A stretch of DNA of 64,000 nucleotides from Alphaproteobacteria bacterium (GCA_020446675.1 JAGREE010000007.1:1-64000); one strand, 5' to 3'; counted from the stretch's first letter, positions 32,762 to 40,440 are shown. The notes: generated by a model not told the origin, from the sequence alone. Numbers and translations are program-made.

Positions 32762-33445
32762 TTAAAGACAAACTTTATTATATCGTTCATTTTCCCTGGC
32801 AAACATTTCCTTGATAACATCGCCGTCTGATGGCTCGACTTCCAATGTTTCTGGGTCCCATTGATGTCTGGGCGTTGCGAAAAAATCACCTCCGTAAATA
32901 TGAATTCCACCAGTGAAGCGAAGCAATGGATTGGTAACAGAATGAATTGCGTCGGCTTCCATGGTTGTCACGTCCCCTTCAAAAAGGCAATTGGCGGTCA
33001 CGGCTTCTATTCCATTTTCACCCTGTTTCCATAAAATATTATCCTCACGACCGGTATATATCCCGATGAGGGCCCACATTTCATGATCATGTGGCAGTAA
33101 ATTCATTTGTGGTGTCCAGGCCGCCGCAAATATGGTTAGTGTTGGCGAAGATAGAAGCACATCAAGTCCAGCTTTTGATGGGTCTCCCAGTGTTTTTAGA
33201 ACGGAACCATGATCAGATACAGCACGGGCCAAGACTTCCCTTACGGCGGATCTGGCGTCTGTTTCCATATGGGCTTTAATACAGTCTTCCACGAAACGGT
33301 CCCTGTCAAACGGTCTGGATTGACCTTTTGCAAGATCAACTCTGGTCTTACCCGGCTTTTGCTGGCCTATCGCTATTGTCGTTGAGGTTGTTATGGCGGC
33401 CGTTCCGGCTATTAAAAAATTGCGACGAGAAAAATTAGAGGCCAC
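32762..33445 (-). CDS. Tat-exported cupin-fold protein
   Basis: 227 residues. The N-terminus SNFSRRNFLIAGTAA is a twin-arginine signal. The rest resembles the predicted metal-dependent double-stranded beta-helix (cysteine-dioxygenase-like, COG5553) group: an alpha-helical start, then PQMNLLPHDHEMWALIGIYTG with the HxH metal pair and Glu expected of a cupin metal site, and a later His in AIHSVTN. An export signal is unusual for this group, whose known members are cytosolic. Divergent from an HxlR-type regulator 155 bp away, which probably controls it. Substrate unknown. Confidence 0.75.
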   Translation of the reverse strand: MASNFSRRNFLIAGTAAITTSTTIAIGQQKPGKTRVDLAKGQSRPFDRDRFVEDCIKAHMETDARSAVREVLARAVSDHGSVLKTLGDPSKAGLDVLLSSPTLTIFAAAWTPQMNLLPHDHEMWALIGIYTGREDNILWKQGENGIEAVTANCLFEGDVTTMEADAIHSVTNPLLRFTGGIHIYGGDFFATPRHQWDPETLEVEPSDGDVIKEMFARENERYNKVCL

Positions 33446-33600: not shown

Positions 33601-34281
33601 ATGTCGACATTTGGTCAGTTTTGCCCAATTGCACTTGCATCAGAAATTCTGACCCAAAAATGGATGTTGCTTATCGTCCGGGAATTAAATGCTGGAAGCA
33701 AAAGATTTAATGATATCCGTCGCGGTGTTCCCAGAATTTCTGCCACTTTGCTTAAACAAAGACTTGATCAGCTGGAATTGGCAGGGGCATTGATTAAAAA
33801 GCCAATGGATAATGGTGCAGGGGATGAATATTTACTTACTGATGCTGGTCGGGAATTAAAAAATATATTGGGCGCCATTGGTGAATGGGGGCAAAGATGG
33901 GCTAGGGATATATCCCCGGAAGATCTTGACCCCGGTTGGCTTGTATGGGCAATGCACAGGCGCATTGATACTAGCCGGATGCCAAAAGGAAGAACGGTAC
34001 TGGAAATAGAATTTACGGATGCGCCAAAATCACAACGTTTTTTCTGGCTTCTTTGTCATAAAGATAATGTAGATGTCTGCATAAAACCCCCAGGATATGA
34101 CACGGACTTGACTATAAAAACGGATGTTCTGACACTCGCAAAAGTATGGCGTGGTATTGGTGAATTAAAAAAAGAGATATCCTGCGGGCACATCACACTA
34201 GAAGGTAAAAATGATCTTAAAAAACAATTTCCAAATTGGTTGCTACTTAGTATTTTTGCAAAAATAAAAAAACAAAAGTGA
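33601..34281 (+). CDS. HxlR-type regulator with C-terminal SCP2-like domain
   Basis: 226 residues. The N-terminal 100 residues are an HxlR winged helix: FCPIALASEILTQKWMLLIVRELNAG with the leading Cys seen in redox/aldehyde-sensing HxlR proteins, then RFNDIRRGVPRISATLLKQRLDQLE. The C-terminal half (about 115-220) looks like an SCP2 sterol-carrier-type ligand pocket. Strong AGGAGGG ribosome binding site. Divergent from the Tat-exported cupin gene and upstream of an APC permease, so likely a ligand-responsive repressor of one or both. The ligand is unknown. Confidence 0.82.
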   Translation: MSTFGQFCPIALASEILTQKWMLLIVRELNAGSKRFNDIRRGVPRISATLLKQRLDQLELAGALIKKPMDNGAGDEYLLTDAGRELKNILGAIGEWGQRWARDISPEDLDPGWLVWAMHRRIDTSRMPKGRTVLEIEFTDAPKSQRFFWLLCHKDNVDVCIKPPGYDTDLTIKTDVLTLAKVWRGIGELKKEISCGHITLEGKNDLKKQFPNWLLLSIFAKIKKQK

Positions 34282-34403: not shown

Positions 34404-35720
34404 ATGTCTGAGGGAACATCTAAAAAACTGCTTGGCTTTTGGGATCTGATGGGTATATCGCTTGGTCAGATTATTGGCACCGGGGTTGTGGTGCTGACCG
34501 GGATCAGTATCAGTATGACAGGTTATGGTGCGCCCTGGGCTTTTATATTTGCTCTGGCAATTGTTGCTATCCCGACCATCTGTATTGCGGCTTTGGGATC
34601 TGCCGTGCCCAATACCGGGGGTAATTATACCTATGTGCGTGATTTTCTTGGGCCAAGGACTTCTTTTCTTTATCTGTCGCTATTGATTTCGGGACAGGTG
34701 ATTCTGGCCAGTTTTGCGATCGGTTTTGCCGAATACGCATCAGAACTTTTTCCAGGCATTAACCTGACCTTTACCGCCGCTTTTATTATGGTGCTTTGTT
34801 ATCTGGCCAATTTATTCGGGATCAAGACAGCCGCCCGGTTCCAAAGCATTATGGTGTTGGTTCTTGTCGGGTCGCTTATTTTTTATATTTTGTCAGGCCT
34901 CGGCCATATTGATGATTACAGCCATTATAGCTCAGCGGGTGATGTGTTACCCAATGGATTTGGCGGTTTTTTTGCCGCAGCATTCCTGCTTCGTCTTAGC
35001 CTGATTGGGTCTGAATTTGTTTCTGAATTTGGCGGGGAAATGGAAAATCCCGGAAAAACGATTCCATTGGTCATGGGACTTTCGCTGCTTCTGGTGGTGG
35101 TGCTTTATATTGGCATTGCCATCGTTGCGACAGGTGTATTGCCGCTTGAGGAGGTATTGGGAAAAAATCTGGCAGCAACGGCTGAAGTTGTTTTTTCACC
35201 GCCGGTTTATATTGCCTTTATCGGTGGTGGTATTATGATTTCCCTGGTCACATCCCTTAATGCAATTTTTGCCTGGTGTACACGGGGGCTTTATATGGCA
35301 ACGGAGGATGGCTGGCTGCCCATAAAGCTGGCGGCAAAAAATAAATATGGCACACCTTATATTTATTTGACGGTCTTTTTCATTGTCGGGATTACGCCGA
35401 TCCTGACCGGGCTCAGTCTTGAATATGTGTCAATTCTTGGGAACGCGGTGGGGGCAATTTTCGGATTGTTTCCTGTTGTTGCGCTTTTTAATCTGTCCAA
35501 TCGAAATCCGGAAGCCTATAAAAAAGCCCCGTTCAGATTGCCGGTCTGGGCAACCAAGCTATTCCCGATGATCGCTGTTATAATTTATGGCTACGGGATC
35601 TATTCCTCATGGGATTTTATCGGCAATACAGGCTGGTTCATGCTTGCCGGTTACGTAGTGCTGATCATAGGGTATATTGCGATCCGGCAAAAGCATGTCA
35701 GGGCCTGTCAGGAAAACTAA
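34404..35720 (+). CDS. APC-family amino acid permease
   Basis: Twelve-helix amino-acid/polyamine transporter of the APC superfamily, 438 residues. Seen: the first helix with GQIIGTGVVVLTGI (the unwound GxG substrate motif), AALGSAVPNTGGNYTYVRDFLGPRTSF in helix 2-3, and SLNAIFAWCTRGLYMATEDGWLP in the helix 8 loop. Substrate unknown; neighbours are PLP enzymes and an amino-acid kinase-like gene, which suggests import of an unusual amino acid or amine. GAGGG ribosome binding site. Its stop overlaps the end of the convergent class V PLP gene by 4 bp. Confidence 0.9.
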   Translation: MSEGTSKKLLGFWDLMGISLGQIIGTGVVVLTGISISMTGYGAPWAFIFALAIVAIPTICIAALGSAVPNTGGNYTYVRDFLGPRTSFLYLSLLISGQVILASFAIGFAEYASELFPGINLTFTAAFIMVLCYLANLFGIKTAARFQSIMVLVLVGSLIFYILSGLGHIDDYSHYSSAGDVLPNGFGGFFAAAFLLRLSLIGSEFVSEFGGEMENPGKTIPLVMGLSLLLVVVLYIGIAIVATGVLPLEEVLGKNLAATAEVVFSPPVYIAFIGGGIMISLVTSLNAIFAWCTRGLYMATEDGWLPIKLAAKNKYGTPYIYLTVFFIVGITPILTGLSLEYVSILGNAVGAIFGLFPVVALFNLSNRNPEAYKKAPFRLPVWATKLFPMIAVIIYGYGIYSSWDFIGNTGWFMLAGYVVLIIGYIAIRQKHVRACQEN

Positions 35721-36943
35721 ACAGCCCCTTTTAATGCCCCCAGCAGTTTGTCAATGTCCGCCATATCATTAAAGACCGATGGTGAAATGCGAAAGCGATC
35801 AGGATATAAGGCTATCTGAATATTGGCGGCATCCATCCTTGGTTTTAATATTTTATCGGCACCCGCGAGCGAAACGACAACCATCGGTCCGTCGCTGTCA
35901 TTTGGGGTAATCACATTATATCCCATTTTTGGCAGTTCCGTCTTTAAATGATCGGTCATATTTTTTGAATAGGCGTGAATATTTTCAACGCCCATCTCCA
36001 ATATATAGGTAAGGGATTGTTTCAGGATTGCCACTCCGCTGAAGGAACGGGTGCCAATTGCAAAAAGCCCTGAAGCACTCTCTGGAAACCCGTAATTTTC
36101 TTTTGCGTCTTCTGCGGCTTTTCCAGCGCTTGGTGTGTTAAGGCCAAAATATCCGAAATTGGTGCGGGCAAGGTGGTTTTGAGCCTGTTTGCTGGCATAA
36201 ATAAAGCCGGTACCAAAGTCCCCCATCAACCATTTGTAACTTGAACAGGCAGCAAAATCGATGCCGCAATCCTTTACATCAATGGGAACAGTGCCAGCCG
36301 CCTGTACCATATCGGCATATACAAGCGTTCCGTTTTTATGGGCGATTTCACAGACGGCTTTAAGGTCATGTTTAAAGCCTGTCTCCATGGCAACCAGTGA
36401 CAAAGCAATCAGTTTGGTATTGGGCCTTAAGGCATTTTTGATGTCACTCAGGTCAATGCGGTTATTTCTCCCTTCAATGCGGGTGACATCCATGCCGTTA
36501 TGGGCCATCCAGTCATACATGATGAGCGAAGGGTGAAAATGAAACTCGTCGGTAATGATATGTCCACCACTTTCGGGGAATCCAAGTCCCCGGACGATCA
36601 TCTGTTCACCGGCGGATGTGCTTTGAACATAGGCCACTTCATCAAAATCCGCATTTATCATTTTGGCGAAATTTTCAATCGGAATATTGCTGTCATGAAG
36701 TCCCTTTGGCGCTTTTGGATTAAGCCGGCGTTTTGCAAGATATGTTTCCGCCTCTGCGCTGGATTTAAAACTGATCGGATGCTGCGATGCGTTGTTCAGA
36801 TAGGTGAATCCCATTTTTTCAAATGATTCTTTATCCGGAAGTGAAGGGACAGCCGCTGAAACAATATTTGTCTGAGCCAGTGCCATGCTCGCGATCGGTA
36901 ATGCGGCGGTTGTTTTGATAAGACCTCTGCGGGTGATCTTCAT
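35717..36943 (-). CDS. Tat-exported class V aminotransferase-like PLP enzyme
   Basis: 408 residues. The N-terminus MKITRRGLIKTTAALPIAS is a twin-arginine signal ending near ALAQTN, so a folded, PLP-loaded enzyme would be exported. The body is class V fold-type I: FTYLNNASQHPISFKS, the cofactor region VQSTSAGEQMIVRGLG, DMVQAAGTVPIDVKDC, and the Schiff-base lysine in AACSSYKWLMGDFGTGF. Related to isopenicillin-N epimerase-like proteins and to 1880-3058. An exported PLP enzyme suggests conversion of an amino compound in the periplasm, perhaps before uptake by the convergent APC permease. Function is inferred only. Confidence 0.85.
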   Translation of the reverse strand: MKITRRGLIKTTAALPIASMALAQTNIVSAAVPSLPDKESFEKMGFTYLNNASQHPISFKSSAEAETYLAKRRLNPKAPKGLHDSNIPIENFAKMINADFDEVAYVQSTSAGEQMIVRGLGFPESGGHIITDEFHFHPSLIMYDWMAHNGMDVTRIEGRNNRIDLSDIKNALRPNTKLIALSLVAMETGFKHDLKAVCEIAHKNGTLVYADMVQAAGTVPIDVKDCGIDFAACSSYKWLMGDFGTGFIYASKQAQNHLARTNFGYFGLNTPSAGKAAEDAKENYGFPESASGLFAIGTRSFSGVAILKQSLTYILEMGVENIHAYSKNMTDHLKTELPKMGYNVITPNDSDGPMVVVSLAGADKILKPRMDAANIQIALYPDRFRISPSVFNDMADIDKLLGALKGAV

Positions 36944-37091
36944 TTAAGTCTCCTAAAACGAGAATAGTGATATAAAAATCACCATAGCCAATTTATTTTA
37001 AAATGTCACACGGCATGATGATTTCTGTCTGGACTTTGTGACACTATTTCTACAGGATGGCCCGATTATTACGTATGAAGGGAGGAAATTT

Positions 37092-38258
37092 ATGCATCTG
37101 TTAGACAGCCCGATAAGATCTGAAGAGCTGCTTGTAAAGACGTTCGGAATAAAACATCGTTTTTATGCCTCTTCATCAGAACCGCTTTCCCATAAGGAAC
37201 TGATTGAGCTTGCTGAAAAGCATGGGGATCGTGATCTTATCGATCTTTATAATGATCATTCACTTGGATATGCGGAAAATAGCGGCAGCCTTGATTTGCG
37301 AACAGAACTGGCAACCCTTTATGGTCCCGAAATTGACGCCGATAATATTGTTGTCTTTCCGGGTGCACAGACAGGTATGACATTGACGACATTATCGCTC
37401 CTTCGCCCGGGGGATCATTCAATCGTTATAACGCCGAGTTATCAGTCCCTTGAAGAAGGTATAAAAATTGCAGGAAGTGATTTTACGAGAGTGACCCTGA
37501 GCCCAAAAAATAACTGGCAGGTTGATGTGGCCGCGATCGAAGCGGCCATTCGCGGGAACACAAAATATATAGTATTTAATGATCCGCATAACCCGTCAGG
37601 GTCATTGATGAGCGCCCAGACCAAAAAAGAACTTGTTGAATTGGCCGAACGACATAACATCCTGCTTTTTTCTGATGAAGTTTACCGACTGCTTGAGCTT
37701 GCCCCTAAAATGCGGTCGGCGTCAATCGCGGAAATGACAGAAAATGGCATAGCTCTTGGCACAATGGCCAAGCCTTTTGGCGCTGGGGGGACCTGTATTG
37801 GCTGGGTTGCCTGTCAGGATAAAGACATCATTGAAAAATTGCGAAAAGCGCAGCATATTTTCGCGGTTTGTTTTGCCCGTGCCGGTGAAATACAGGCCAT
37901 GATGGTTCTTCGCGTTCGCGAGAGTATCGTTGAAAAAAATATGAATATAATCAAAGAAAACCTGGCACTGCTGGAAGATTTTTTTGCGAAAAATGGCGAC
38001 CTTTTTGAATGGATGCCGCCACAGGCTGGTGGAACAGGGTTTGTGAAATTCAAAGGGCCGCTGACGTCCGATCAACTGGCCAAAGAATTGCTGGAGCAGG
38101 AGATATTGGTTTTCCCGTCATCCATTTTTGATTGTGAGGATGAACTTAAACAATATTTCCGTATTGGCTTCAGCAGACGCACTATGCCCGCCGCGTTGGA
38201 CGCTTTTAAGGAATTCGTTGATGAACGAAGGGAAAGTTGGGGATTTCCCCGTTCATAA
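37092..38258 (+). CDS. Fold-type I (class I/II) aminotransferase-like enzyme, paralogue 1
   Basis: 388-residue cytoplasmic PLP enzyme. ATG 37092 is chosen because it follows a perfect GGAGGAAATT site; a longer frame to 37038 exists. Cofactor residues are present: Asn163 in NDPHNPSGSL, Asp195/Tyr198 in SDEVYRLLE, Schiff-base Lys227 in GTMAKPFG, and the substrate-carboxylate Arg in FRIGF. After the lysine the usual GLRIGW reads GTCIGW, so the Arg that normally contacts the PLP phosphate is missing. The same loss occurs in the paralogue at 39280. First gene of a three-gene operon with a kinase. Reaction unknown: aminotransferase, lyase or oxidase. Confidence 0.85.
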   Translation: MHLLDSPIRSEELLVKTFGIKHRFYASSSEPLSHKELIELAEKHGDRDLIDLYNDHSLGYAENSGSLDLRTELATLYGPEIDADNIVVFPGAQTGMTLTTLSLLRPGDHSIVITPSYQSLEEGIKIAGSDFTRVTLSPKNNWQVDVAAIEAAIRGNTKYIVFNDPHNPSGSLMSAQTKKELVELAERHNILLFSDEVYRLLELAPKMRSASIAEMTENGIALGTMAKPFGAGGTCIGWVACQDKDIIEKLRKAQHIFAVCFARAGEIQAMMVLRVRESIVEKNMNIIKENLALLEDFFAKNGDLFEWMPPQAGGTGFVKFKGPLTSDQLAKELLEQEILVFPSSIFDCEDELKQYFRIGFSRRTMPAALDAFKEFVDERRESWGFPRS

Positions 38259-38298
38259 ATCATAAATTTTAAGTGAAGTGTTATATTAAAGAAAAATT

Positions 38299-39270
38299 AT
38301 GCAGGATCAGGTTCCCAATTTTAGTAATGAAAAGATCGCAAACATTGCCAAAGAGCTTTATGGTCTGGAAGGTGAGATCAAGGCACTTGTTTCCTTTGAA
38401 GATCAGAATGCCCGGATTAAAACGGCAAATGGTAGGTTTGTCCTAAAAATTGCCAATAAAAGATGGAGCAGGGAATTTCTGCAGATGCAGACGGATGTTC
38501 TGGATCATTTGAAAATGGTGGCCCCGGATATGGCCTTTCCGGAAGCGGTTAAAACCCTGAAAGGTGAAACGATCACCTATATTGATGGTTTTGCAGTTCG
38601 ACTACTGACCTATCTTGAAGGAAATATTCTGGCAAATATGGACAGAAGCCCTGTTCTTTATAAGGATATAGGGCGTTTTCTGGGCCAGTATTCAAAAGCG
38701 ATGGAGAGTTTCCCATATGACGGCACTGACGGGTCGGACAAATACTGGAAGCTGGATAATGTCATCGCCTGCAAAAAATATCTTCCGGAGGTTGATGACC
38801 TTGACGCGAGAGACCGGATTGAACGGCTTTATAGTCATTATGAAAAAAATATTCTGCCACTGCTGCCTGATCTTCGTAAAGCCGTAATTCACAGTGATGC
38901 CAATGAGCAAAATTTTCTGATTAATCCGGAAAGGCCTGAAAAAATAGCGGGGCTGATTGATTTTGGTGAAATGCAATATGCCAGTCAGGTCAATGAGCTT
39001 GCCATAACCCTTGCATACAGTCTTTTAAACGAGGATGATATTGACATGGCCTCTGGTAATATTATTGATGGATATATCGGCGAATTTCCGCTTGAGCCGC
39101 TAGAGCAGGAAATTTTATATGATCTGATGGCCATGCGTCTTGTGACCAATATTACAATGACATCCCATAGTGCAAAAATGTTTCCTGATAATGACTATAT
39201 TTTAATATCACAAAAACCGGCCAGAGAGCTTTTAAAAAAACTGGAAGACGAAAACTATATATTAAGATAG
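38299..39270 (+). CDS. APH-fold kinase, hydroxylysine-kinase-like
   Basis: 323-residue small-molecule kinase of the aminoglycoside phosphotransferase / homoserine kinase fold. Seen: LYGLEGEIKALVSFEDQNARI and RFVLKIAN with the ATP-binding Lys, the catalytic loop AVIHSDANEQNFLI (HxDxxxxN) and the metal-binding DFG in LIDFGEMQYA. The N-terminal pattern resembles hydroxylysine kinases and the kinase part of bacterial kinase-aminotransferase fusions. It lies 40 bp after one PLP-enzyme gene and 9 bp before its paralogue, so all three are one operon. Probably phosphorylates a hydroxyl of an amino acid or amine. Confidence 0.85.
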   Translation: MQDQVPNFSNEKIANIAKELYGLEGEIKALVSFEDQNARIKTANGRFVLKIANKRWSREFLQMQTDVLDHLKMVAPDMAFPEAVKTLKGETITYIDGFAVRLLTYLEGNILANMDRSPVLYKDIGRFLGQYSKAMESFPYDGTDGSDKYWKLDNVIACKKYLPEVDDLDARDRIERLYSHYEKNILPLLPDLRKAVIHSDANEQNFLINPERPEKIAGLIDFGEMQYASQVNELAITLAYSLLNEDDIDMASGNIIDGYIGEFPLEPLEQEILYDLMAMRLVTNITMTSHSAKMFPDNDYILISQKPARELLKKLEDENYILR

Positions 39271-39279
39271 CATTGTACA

Positions 39280-40440
39280 ATGACATATAGAGAACCATGG
39301 TCTAAAAAACATAAAAGGGTGACGGCAAATACACCGTTTAATCTGTCCAATTCCTTTGCCGAGCCACTCACCAGTGACGAGCTGATCAGGCTTTCGCTGG
39401 AGCGTGGAGACAAAGATATTGTTGAGCAATATCAGCATCATATCCTGACTTATACGCCCAATGGCGGCAGCCTTGATCTGCGGGAGGAAATAGCAGGGTT
39501 ATATGGCCCGGCTATAGGTCCGGAAAATATTGTCGTTTTTCCGGGGGCACAGGTGGCATTGCAGACAGCAGCCAATGCAATTGTTGATGAAAATTGCCAT
39601 TCAATTGTTTTTACCCCAGCTTATCAGTCCGTACAGCAGGCCCCCCTTCATGCGGGAAGTGAGATCACAAAAATCAGACTTGATCCGGAGAGTGGATGGC
39701 AGATTGACCCTGATCAGGTGGAAGCGGCAATAAAACCGAATACGAAATATATGGTTTTTAATGAACCCTTTAATCCGGCTGGTACATTGATGAGCCATAA
39801 AAGCCAGGCATGCTTAAAGGATATTGCTGAAAAAAATGGGATTTATATATTATCTGATGAAGTTTACCGATTGCTGGAACATGATGAAAAAGACAGACTG
39901 CCGGCCATGGCGGATTTTTATGATAAGGGCATAAGCGCTGTTACCCTTTCAAAACCATGGGGAGGATGCGGCATTACCATCGGCTGGCTGGCGATGCAGG
40001 ATCTGGACTTAAAACAAAAAATCATTGATACAATGTATTTTGCTACAGCCTGCCCAAGCCGTGCCAGTGAAATTCAGGCAATTATGACGCTTCGGGCAAG
40101 TGATTATATACTCGAACGAAATTTAAAAATTATCAGACATAATGTGGCTCTTCTGGATCAGTTTGTCGAAAAATACCGTGAGTTTTTTGAATGGGTGAGG
40201 CCGGTTGCCGGGGCCATTGCCTATATGAAATTTAAAGGGCCATTAAGTTCCGAAGAACTTGGGGAACAATTGGCTGAGCATGGGATATCAATTAAACCTG
40301 CTTATGTTTTTTCCGATGAAAAATTATATACTGACTATTTTCGAATTGGGTATGGAGAAGCCATCATGCCCAAGGCACTTGATGCGCTCATCCGGTTTGT
40401 CGAGGATCATCAGAAAGAATGGCGAAGCCAGCTTTCATAA
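39280..40440 (+). CDS. Fold-type I (class I/II) aminotransferase-like enzyme, paralogue 2
   Basis: 386 residues, clearly homologous along its length to 37092-38258 (for example NGGSLDLREEIAGLYGP against NSGSLDLRTELATLYGP). Cofactor residues: Asn161 in NEPFNPAGTL, Asp193/Tyr196 in SDEVYRLLE, Schiff-base Lys225 in VTLSKPWG, and Arg in FRIGY. Where most class I enzymes have GLRIGW it has GITIGW, so the phosphate-contacting Arg is again absent. Starts 9 bp after the kinase gene. May form a heterodimer with paralogue 1 or act on the phosphorylated product of the kinase; both ideas are inference. Confidence 0.85.
   Translation: MTYREPWSKKHKRVTANTPFNLSNSFAEPLTSDELIRLSLERGDKDIVEQYQHHILTYTPNGGSLDLREEIAGLYGPAIGPENIVVFPGAQVALQTAANAIVDENCHSIVFTPAYQSVQQAPLHAGSEITKIRLDPESGWQIDPDQVEAAIKPNTKYMVFNEPFNPAGTLMSHKSQACLKDIAEKNGIYILSDEVYRLLEHDEKDRLPAMADFYDKGISAVTLSKPWGGCGITIGWLAMQDLDLKQKIIDTMYFATACPSRASEIQAIMTLRASDYILERNLKIIRHNVALLDQFVEKYREFFEWVRPVAGAIAYMKFKGPLSSEELGEQLAEHGISIKPAYVFSDEKLYTDYFRIGYGEAIMPKALDALIRFVEDHQKEWRSQLS

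What the first reader, a model, noticed from the sequence alone, without database searches (positions are those of the whole stretch)
34404..40440. Kinase set between twin Arg-less PLP enzymes, with permease and exported PLP enzyme
Two paralogous fold-type I PLP enzymes bracket a hydroxylysine-kinase-like gene in one operon, beside an APC permease and a Tat-exported class V PLP enzyme. Both paralogues keep Lys, Asn, Asp, Tyr and the carboxylate Arg but lost the Arg that contacts PLP phosphate (GITIGW, GTCIGW for GLRIGW). In known systems such kinases work with class III phospholyases; here class I-like enzymes replace them. A route for uptake, phosphorylation and elimination or transamination of an unusual hydroxy-amino acid is a reasonable hypothesis, and I know of no described system with this set.
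Basis: partly seen in the sequence, partly recalled or inferred. Interest (0 to 1): 0.68.

Follow-up and report, generated by a model that had tools for sequence, protein, structure and literature searches.

The report
Conserved kinase between twin PLP enzymes
A three-gene unit, seen in only one genus of Alphaproteobacteria in our surveys, puts a kinase between two related vitamin-B6-dependent enzymes that lack the usual cofactor-binding arginine; it probably activates and breaks down a hydroxylated amino acid by a variant of a known scheme, but nothing about its activity has been tested.

Summary
Twin A (37092-38258), kinase K (38299-39270) and twin B (39280-40440) are tightly spaced on one strand. 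Both twins keep the PLP Lys, Asn, Asp, Tyr and the carboxylate Arg, and both lack the Arg eight residues after the PLP lysine. The unit is real: A-K-B is contiguous in eight other species of the genus, at several chromosomal locations. The permease that goes with it is a second APC protein (P2; next to the unit or to A in 9 of 12 genomes), not the window's. The window's permease and the Tat-exported class V enzyme stay at this site in species whose triad lies elsewhere, so they are probably neighbours by position.

The twins are paralogues on a long branch beside the PRK07324/GntC/VioD group and reach none of those families' cut-offs. All have a new Arg 36 residues after the lysine. K descends from kinase domains fused to class III PLP enzymes.

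Best reading: K phosphorylates a hydroxy-amino acid; the class I-type twins then eliminate phosphate or transaminate. The substrate is unknown; an arginine-like or beta-hydroxy amino acid is weakly favoured. New variant of a known kind.

The parts
37080..37085 (+). ribosome-binding site GGGAGG of twin A; start ATG at 37092
   Evidence: sequence read directly; orthologues start at the same methionine
37092..38258 (+). twin A, class I/II-fold PLP enzyme without the Lys+8 Arg (the ORF finder lists it from GTG 37038)
   Evidence: Aminotran_1_2 6.7e-46; orthologues in 11 other genomes of the genus
37770..37772 (+). twin A codon of the PLP lysine; the Lys+8 position is Cys at 37794-37796; the new Arg is at 37878-37880
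38299..39270 (+). kinase K, APH fold, closest to the N-terminal kinase domain of PRK06148
   Evidence: PF01636 2.3e-26; PRK06148 242 bits over residues 3-319; catalytic motifs invariant
39280..40440 (+). twin B, class I/II-fold PLP enzyme without the Lys+8 Arg
   Evidence: Aminotran_1_2 2.1e-33; orthologues in the genus
39952..39954 (+). twin B codon of the PLP lysine K225; the Lys+8 position is Thr233 (39976-39978); new Arg261 at 40060-40062
34404..35720 (+). APC permease P1: neighbour, probably not part of the unit
   Evidence: AA_permease_2 6e-41; stays with the class V gene and rpiB where the triad is elsewhere
35717..36943 (-). Tat-exported class V PLP enzyme: neighbour, probably not part of the unit
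   Evidence: Aminotran_5 1.7e-38; twin-arginine N-terminus; pairs with P1, not with the triad

Best explanation
The unit is twin A - kinase K - twin B, usually with an APC permease (P2) next to it. Shown by sequence: an APH-fold kinase with intact motifs; two diverged fold-type I PLP enzymes with intact catalytic residues and the alpha-carboxylate Arg; tight linkage kept through relocation. Inferred: P2 moves a hydroxylated alpha-amino acid across the membrane; K phosphorylates the hydroxyl, making it a good leaving group; a twin then binds the phospho-amino acid through its alpha-amino group and eliminates phosphate (beta or gamma), or transaminates it, giving a keto acid. The two twins handle successive steps or different isomers, because many positions are fixed differently between them. 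The new invariant Arg (B R261) either replaces the lost PLP-phosphate Arg or binds the substrate phosphate. The substrate is not known; an arginine-like or beta-hydroxy amino acid is weakly favoured from the relatives.
For: A-K-B contiguous in 9 genomes including the window, with A-K and K-B gaps of -13 to 40 bp, in several chromosomal contexts. K's closest relatives are fused or adjacent to class III PLP enzymes, and its clade is sister to a fusion clade of the same genus with another fusion outside both (100/97 at both forks), so it descends from a kinase that worked with a PLP enzyme. The twins' nearest characterised families act on hydroxylated amino acids: GntC on gamma-hydroxy-Arg, VioD and OrfR on beta-hydroxy-Arg (PMC10367076). 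Catalytic residues are invariant; dN is 0.17-0.29 with dS above 2.5 or saturated. P2 is next to the unit or to A in 9 of 12 genomes. In one genome homologues of DoeB and DoeA, which release a diamino acid from ectoine, follow B directly.
Against: No activity is known for any of the three. The DoeAB and DgcN neighbours each occur in one genome only. The structure prediction of B was poor (pLDDT 59.5), so the place of R261 is inferred from alignment. A sits apart from K (and B) in two genomes. PRK07324 relatives may be plain transaminases.
Confidence: 0.42

Rival explanations
1. A biosynthetic unit: K activates a hydroxy-arginine-like amino acid and a twin cyclises it (GntC/VioD-like chemistry with phosphate instead of water as leaving group); the permease imports the precursor or exports the product.
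For: Nearest families by profile are GntC, PRK07324 and VioD; A keeps a Ser pair like S25-S26 of the cyclases and has a conserved acid in the N-terminal helix.
Against: B has no conserved acid in the helix where the cyclases have E9, and both twins have Tyr where GntC has N52; the known cyclases need no kinase; no peptide synthetase or hydroxylase was seen beside the unit.
Confidence: 0.15
2. The twins are ordinary aminotransferases and K phosphorylates another hydroxy compound of the same pathway; no phosphate elimination occurs.
For: NCBI models name relatives aminotransferases; Y58 is the aminotransferase-type tyrosine.
Against: K's kin are linked to PLP enzymes of the phospholyase type; the twins changed the phosphate-contact Arg and gained another, which a plain transaminase does not obviously need.
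Confidence: 0.23
3. K is a homoserine or threonine kinase and the twins are an O-phosphohomoserine or O-phosphothreonine lyase or decarboxylase.
For: K has weak similarity to the APH-type homoserine kinase ThrB (63 and 53 bits); such phosphates fit an alpha-amino PLP enzyme.
Against: The match to ThrB is far below its cut-offs (271 and 256 bits) and far below the match to PRK06148.
Confidence: 0.13
4. A, K and B have no common function; adjacency is accidental.
For: A lies apart from K in two genomes.
Against: A-K and K-B are each adjacent in 10 of 12 genomes at 57-76% protein identity and in several different locations.
Confidence: 0.04

Closest known systems
Kinase plus class III phospholyase systems (HYKK/AGPHD1 with PHYKPL or ETNPPL, from general knowledge; bacterial fusion PRK06148)
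   Same: APH-fold kinase of the same family next to PLP enzymes; implied phosphorylate-then-eliminate logic
   Different: the PLP partners are two class I/II-type enzymes, not a class III enzyme; K is a stand-alone protein; the genome keeps a separate 1017-aa fusion
GntC, VioD and OrfR (arginine cyclases of the class I/II fold)
   Same: closest characterised family by profile; their substrates are hydroxylated arginines
   Different: below cut-offs; Lys+8 Arg lost, GntC N52 is Tyr, no conserved E9 equivalent in B; kinase present
PRK07324 aminotransferase family (tied to the orphan Gd4v riboswitch candidate, PMC9788692)
   Same: nearest named uncharacterised family; the genus has its own relative of it (third paralogue)
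   Different: relatives found here keep the Lys+8 Arg and often sit with a PAS regulator and an ornithine-cyclodeaminase-like protein; the twins do not
Ectoine/hydroxyectoine degradation (DoeA, DoeB, EutB, EutC)
   Same: DoeB and DoeA homologues follow B in one genome
   Different: DoeB model matches in 1 of 14 genomes only, below the cut-off, and not in the window's genome

Membership tests
GntC (NF041364) | score over curated cut-off of 415 bits | tested here: not met
   217 bits for A and 199 for B
GntC (NF041364) | N52 that assists loss of the gamma-hydroxyl | tested here: not met
   the aligned residue is Tyr58 in B, invariant in 19 twins (role of N52 from PMC10367076)
GntC, VioD, OrfR arginine cyclases | conserved N-terminal Glu (E9) and Ser pair S25-S26 | tested here: inconclusive
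   B has no conserved acid in the helix and only one of the two Ser; A keeps a Ser pair and has a conserved acid that may match E9 without gaps
VioD capreomycidine synthase (TIGR03947) | score over cut-off of 391 bits | tested here: not met
   146 and 129 bits
PRK07324 aminotransferase (NF005593) | score over cut-off of 476 bits | tested here: not met
   217 and 213 bits; the genus's own third paralogue also scores only 283
Class I/II-fold PLP enzymes | Schiff-base Lys, ring Asp, Asn and Tyr at the PLP hydroxyl, carboxylate Arg | tested here: met
   K225, D193, N161, Y196, R355 invariant in 19 twins
Class I/II-fold PLP enzymes | Arg at Lys+8 contacting the PLP phosphate | tested here: not met
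   C/G/S in A, T in B; R in all 24 relatives
PRK06148 kinase-class III fusion | kinase, M23 and class III domains in one chain | tested here: not met
   K covers only positions 6-328 of 1015 in the model; the fusion is a separate gene
HYKK-type hydroxy-amino-acid kinases | ATP-dependent phosphorylation of a hydroxylysine-type substrate | not testable with these tools
   only sequence kinship and intact APH motifs shown
Kinase-phospholyase system | PLP partner eliminates phosphate and ammonia | not testable with these tools
   no assay; inferred

The most novel reading that the evidence does not exclude
A second, separately assembled kinase-phospholyase system: a kinase that descends from class III fusions changed partner and now works with a pair of class I/II-type enzymes, in which the phosphate-binding Arg moved to a new position to take a phosphorylated hydroxy-amino acid.
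Probability: 0.33. Interest if true: 0.7.

Novelty: new variant of a known kind. Interest (0 to 1): 0.5.

Why it matters
If true, it shows a kinase changing the class of its PLP partner, and an otherwise fixed active-site arginine moving within one fold. It also gives a small, testable set of proteins beside PRK07324, the family tied to an orphan riboswitch candidate whose ligand is unknown (PMC9788692), so assays on these enzymes could help to narrow that ligand.

Tried and rejected
The window's permease and class V enzyme as parts of the unit: judged unlikely, since they keep their place upstream of rpiB in two genomes whose triad is elsewhere. Ectoine or hydroxyectoine degradation as the general role: the DoeB model matches in 1 of 14 genomes. 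AlphaFold model of B from three sequences: pLDDT 59.5, not used, no fold search made. Genome-collection scan with the kinase gave one close relative only. Rfam scan found no riboswitch in the window, only a tRNA. Promoter and terminator scans were not above shuffled expectation. Paper searches for a bacterial hydroxylysine-type kinase with a class I phospholyase found nothing. A and B as an obligate adjacent pair: weakened by two genomes with A elsewhere.

Full report
What is there. Five genes stand at the stated coordinates: permease P1 (34404-35720, +), a class V PLP enzyme (35717-36943, -), twin A, kinase K (38299-39270, +) and twin B (39280-40440, +). Twin A most likely starts at ATG 37092, not GTG 37038: GGGAGG lies just upstream, and orthologues share the N-terminus MHLLDNPIRS. 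A and K are 40 bp apart and K and B 9 bp, which fits one transcript. The window belongs to a draft genome. The nearest named relative found in the genome collection is an Emcibacteraceae bacterium (lineage).

The Arg-less observation. A and B are 45% identical. In 19 twins the PLP Lys, Asp, Asn, Tyr and the carboxylate Arg are invariant. The residue at Lys+8, which in this fold contacts the PLP phosphate (general knowledge of aspartate aminotransferase, R266), is Cys, Gly or Ser in A and Thr in B. It is Arg in 24 relatives of the third-paralogue family, in GntC and in 3OP7. New here: every twin that spans the site has Arg at B position 261 (Lys+36), where the relatives have Ala or Gly. In the alignment to GntC this lies six residues after the position of H250, which the GntC authors listed among residues that may contribute to catalysis. 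That R261 replaces the lost Arg, or holds a substrate phosphate, is inference: the model of B was too poor to use, and both changes map to one stem of the tree, so this is no statistical evidence of coupling.

What the twins are. Best profile matches are GntC, PRK07324 and VioD, all far below their cut-offs. The tree puts A and B as sister clades (100/100) on a long stem (1.67 changes per column), beside PRK07324-type enzymes of other Alphaproteobacteria (95/82) and not inside the genus's own third-paralogue clade. Twins were not found outside the genus in the other relatives, in 386 genomes of the class or in 397 of the phylum. These are samples; other phyla were searched only through plasmids, where the best identities were 33-36%. 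B lacks a conserved acid where the arginine cyclases have E9, and both twins have Tyr where GntC has N52; A is closer to the cyclases at the Ser pair. More than 40 positions are fixed differently in A and B, so the two probably do different jobs.

What the kinase is. K has the APH motifs intact in all ten orthologues aligned. Its best match is the N-terminal domain of PRK06148 (242 bits). Relatives on plasmids are fused to, or followed by, class III PLP enzymes. The window's genome also has a complete fusion of 1017 aa that passes the PRK06148 cut-off. In the tree the K clade is sister to the genus's fusion clade (100/97), with another family's fusion outside both (100/97), so K most simply descends from a fusion.

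Conservation of the unit. Of 14 genomes in the genus, 12 have A and at least part of K; 11 have B. A-K-B is contiguous in nine, the window included; A and K are adjacent in ten, K and B in ten. In G007 P2 stands between K and B, read across two contigs. In G004 and G008 A lies apart, next to P2 and smpB, while K (with B in G008) lies by P1 and the class V gene, or by rpiB. In G004 K is cut by a contig end and B was not seen. The contexts differ between genomes. The three genes thus stay together through relocation.

Which transporter. P1 and the class V enzyme are a pair of their own: in G005 and G001 they sit between the same upstream genes and rpiB-glyA as in the window, without the triad, which is elsewhere. 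They adjoin the triad, or K, in G000, G011 and G004; G002 has P1 next to A but no class V match. P2, another APC permease whose best matches are general, branched-chain and basic amino-acid transporter models, all below cut-off, is present in all 12 genomes with A. It is next to the unit or to A in nine; in G000, G001 and G011 it is elsewhere.

Mechanism. The best-supported reading is activation of a hydroxyl by K and PLP-dependent elimination of phosphate, or transamination, by the twins. Shown: intact active-site residues, purifying selection, linkage. Inferred: substrate, phosphorylation, elimination, transport. For the substrate, the neighbours in sequence space act on hydroxylated arginines (PMC10367076). 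The third-paralogue family lies in operons with a PAS regulator and an ornithine-cyclodeaminase-like protein, in some Alphaproteobacteria also with a threonine-dehydratase-like protein. PRK07324 genes are also the commonest class under the orphan Gd4v riboswitch candidate, again with cyclodeaminase-type partners (PMC9788692). One genome has ectoine-type hydrolase and deacetylase homologues behind B. These point, weakly, to a beta- or gamma-hydroxylated, nitrogen-rich amino acid.

Known or new. The logic resembles hydroxylysine kinase with its phospholyase; membership is not met on the PLP side. Filing: new variant of a known kind. Interest 0.5: no activity is shown and the substrate is open, but the conserved unit, the changed arginine and the changed partner class are unusual and testable.

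Noticed in passing
L108, L111, L117, L120, L107, L113, L116, L191: PRK07324-type enzymes (third-paralogue family) sit with a PAS-domain regulator and, variously, a threonine-dehydratase-like protein (PRK06815) and an ornithine-cyclodeaminase-like protein, in Alphaproteobacteria and on a Streptomyces plasmid. [quoted passage not shown]
   Followed up: partly
L099:8050-11103, L164:3393-6425, L166:4576-7599: The genus keeps a kinase-M23-class III fusion of about 1010 aa; in these three genomes a class V PLP enzyme (35-37% identical to the window's) lies a few kilobases away, with a protein of about 1020 aa between.
   Followed up: partly
L009:81-1112: In G007 a DgcN-like gene (459 bits, cut-off 480) follows twin B; seen in that genome only.
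   Followed up: partly
L042:3587-5796: In G011 DoeB-like and DoeA-like genes follow twin B directly; both score below the curated cut-offs.
   Followed up: partly
32762-33445: Protein of 227 aa with a Tat-type N-terminus and no Pfam or NCBIfam match, divergent from the HxlR-type regulator at 33601.
   Followed up: no
G010 (same genus in the tool's table): 97% complete by the table but without any of the genes searched (twins, kinase, fusion, permeases, third paralogue); perhaps an odd assembly or placement.
   Followed up: no
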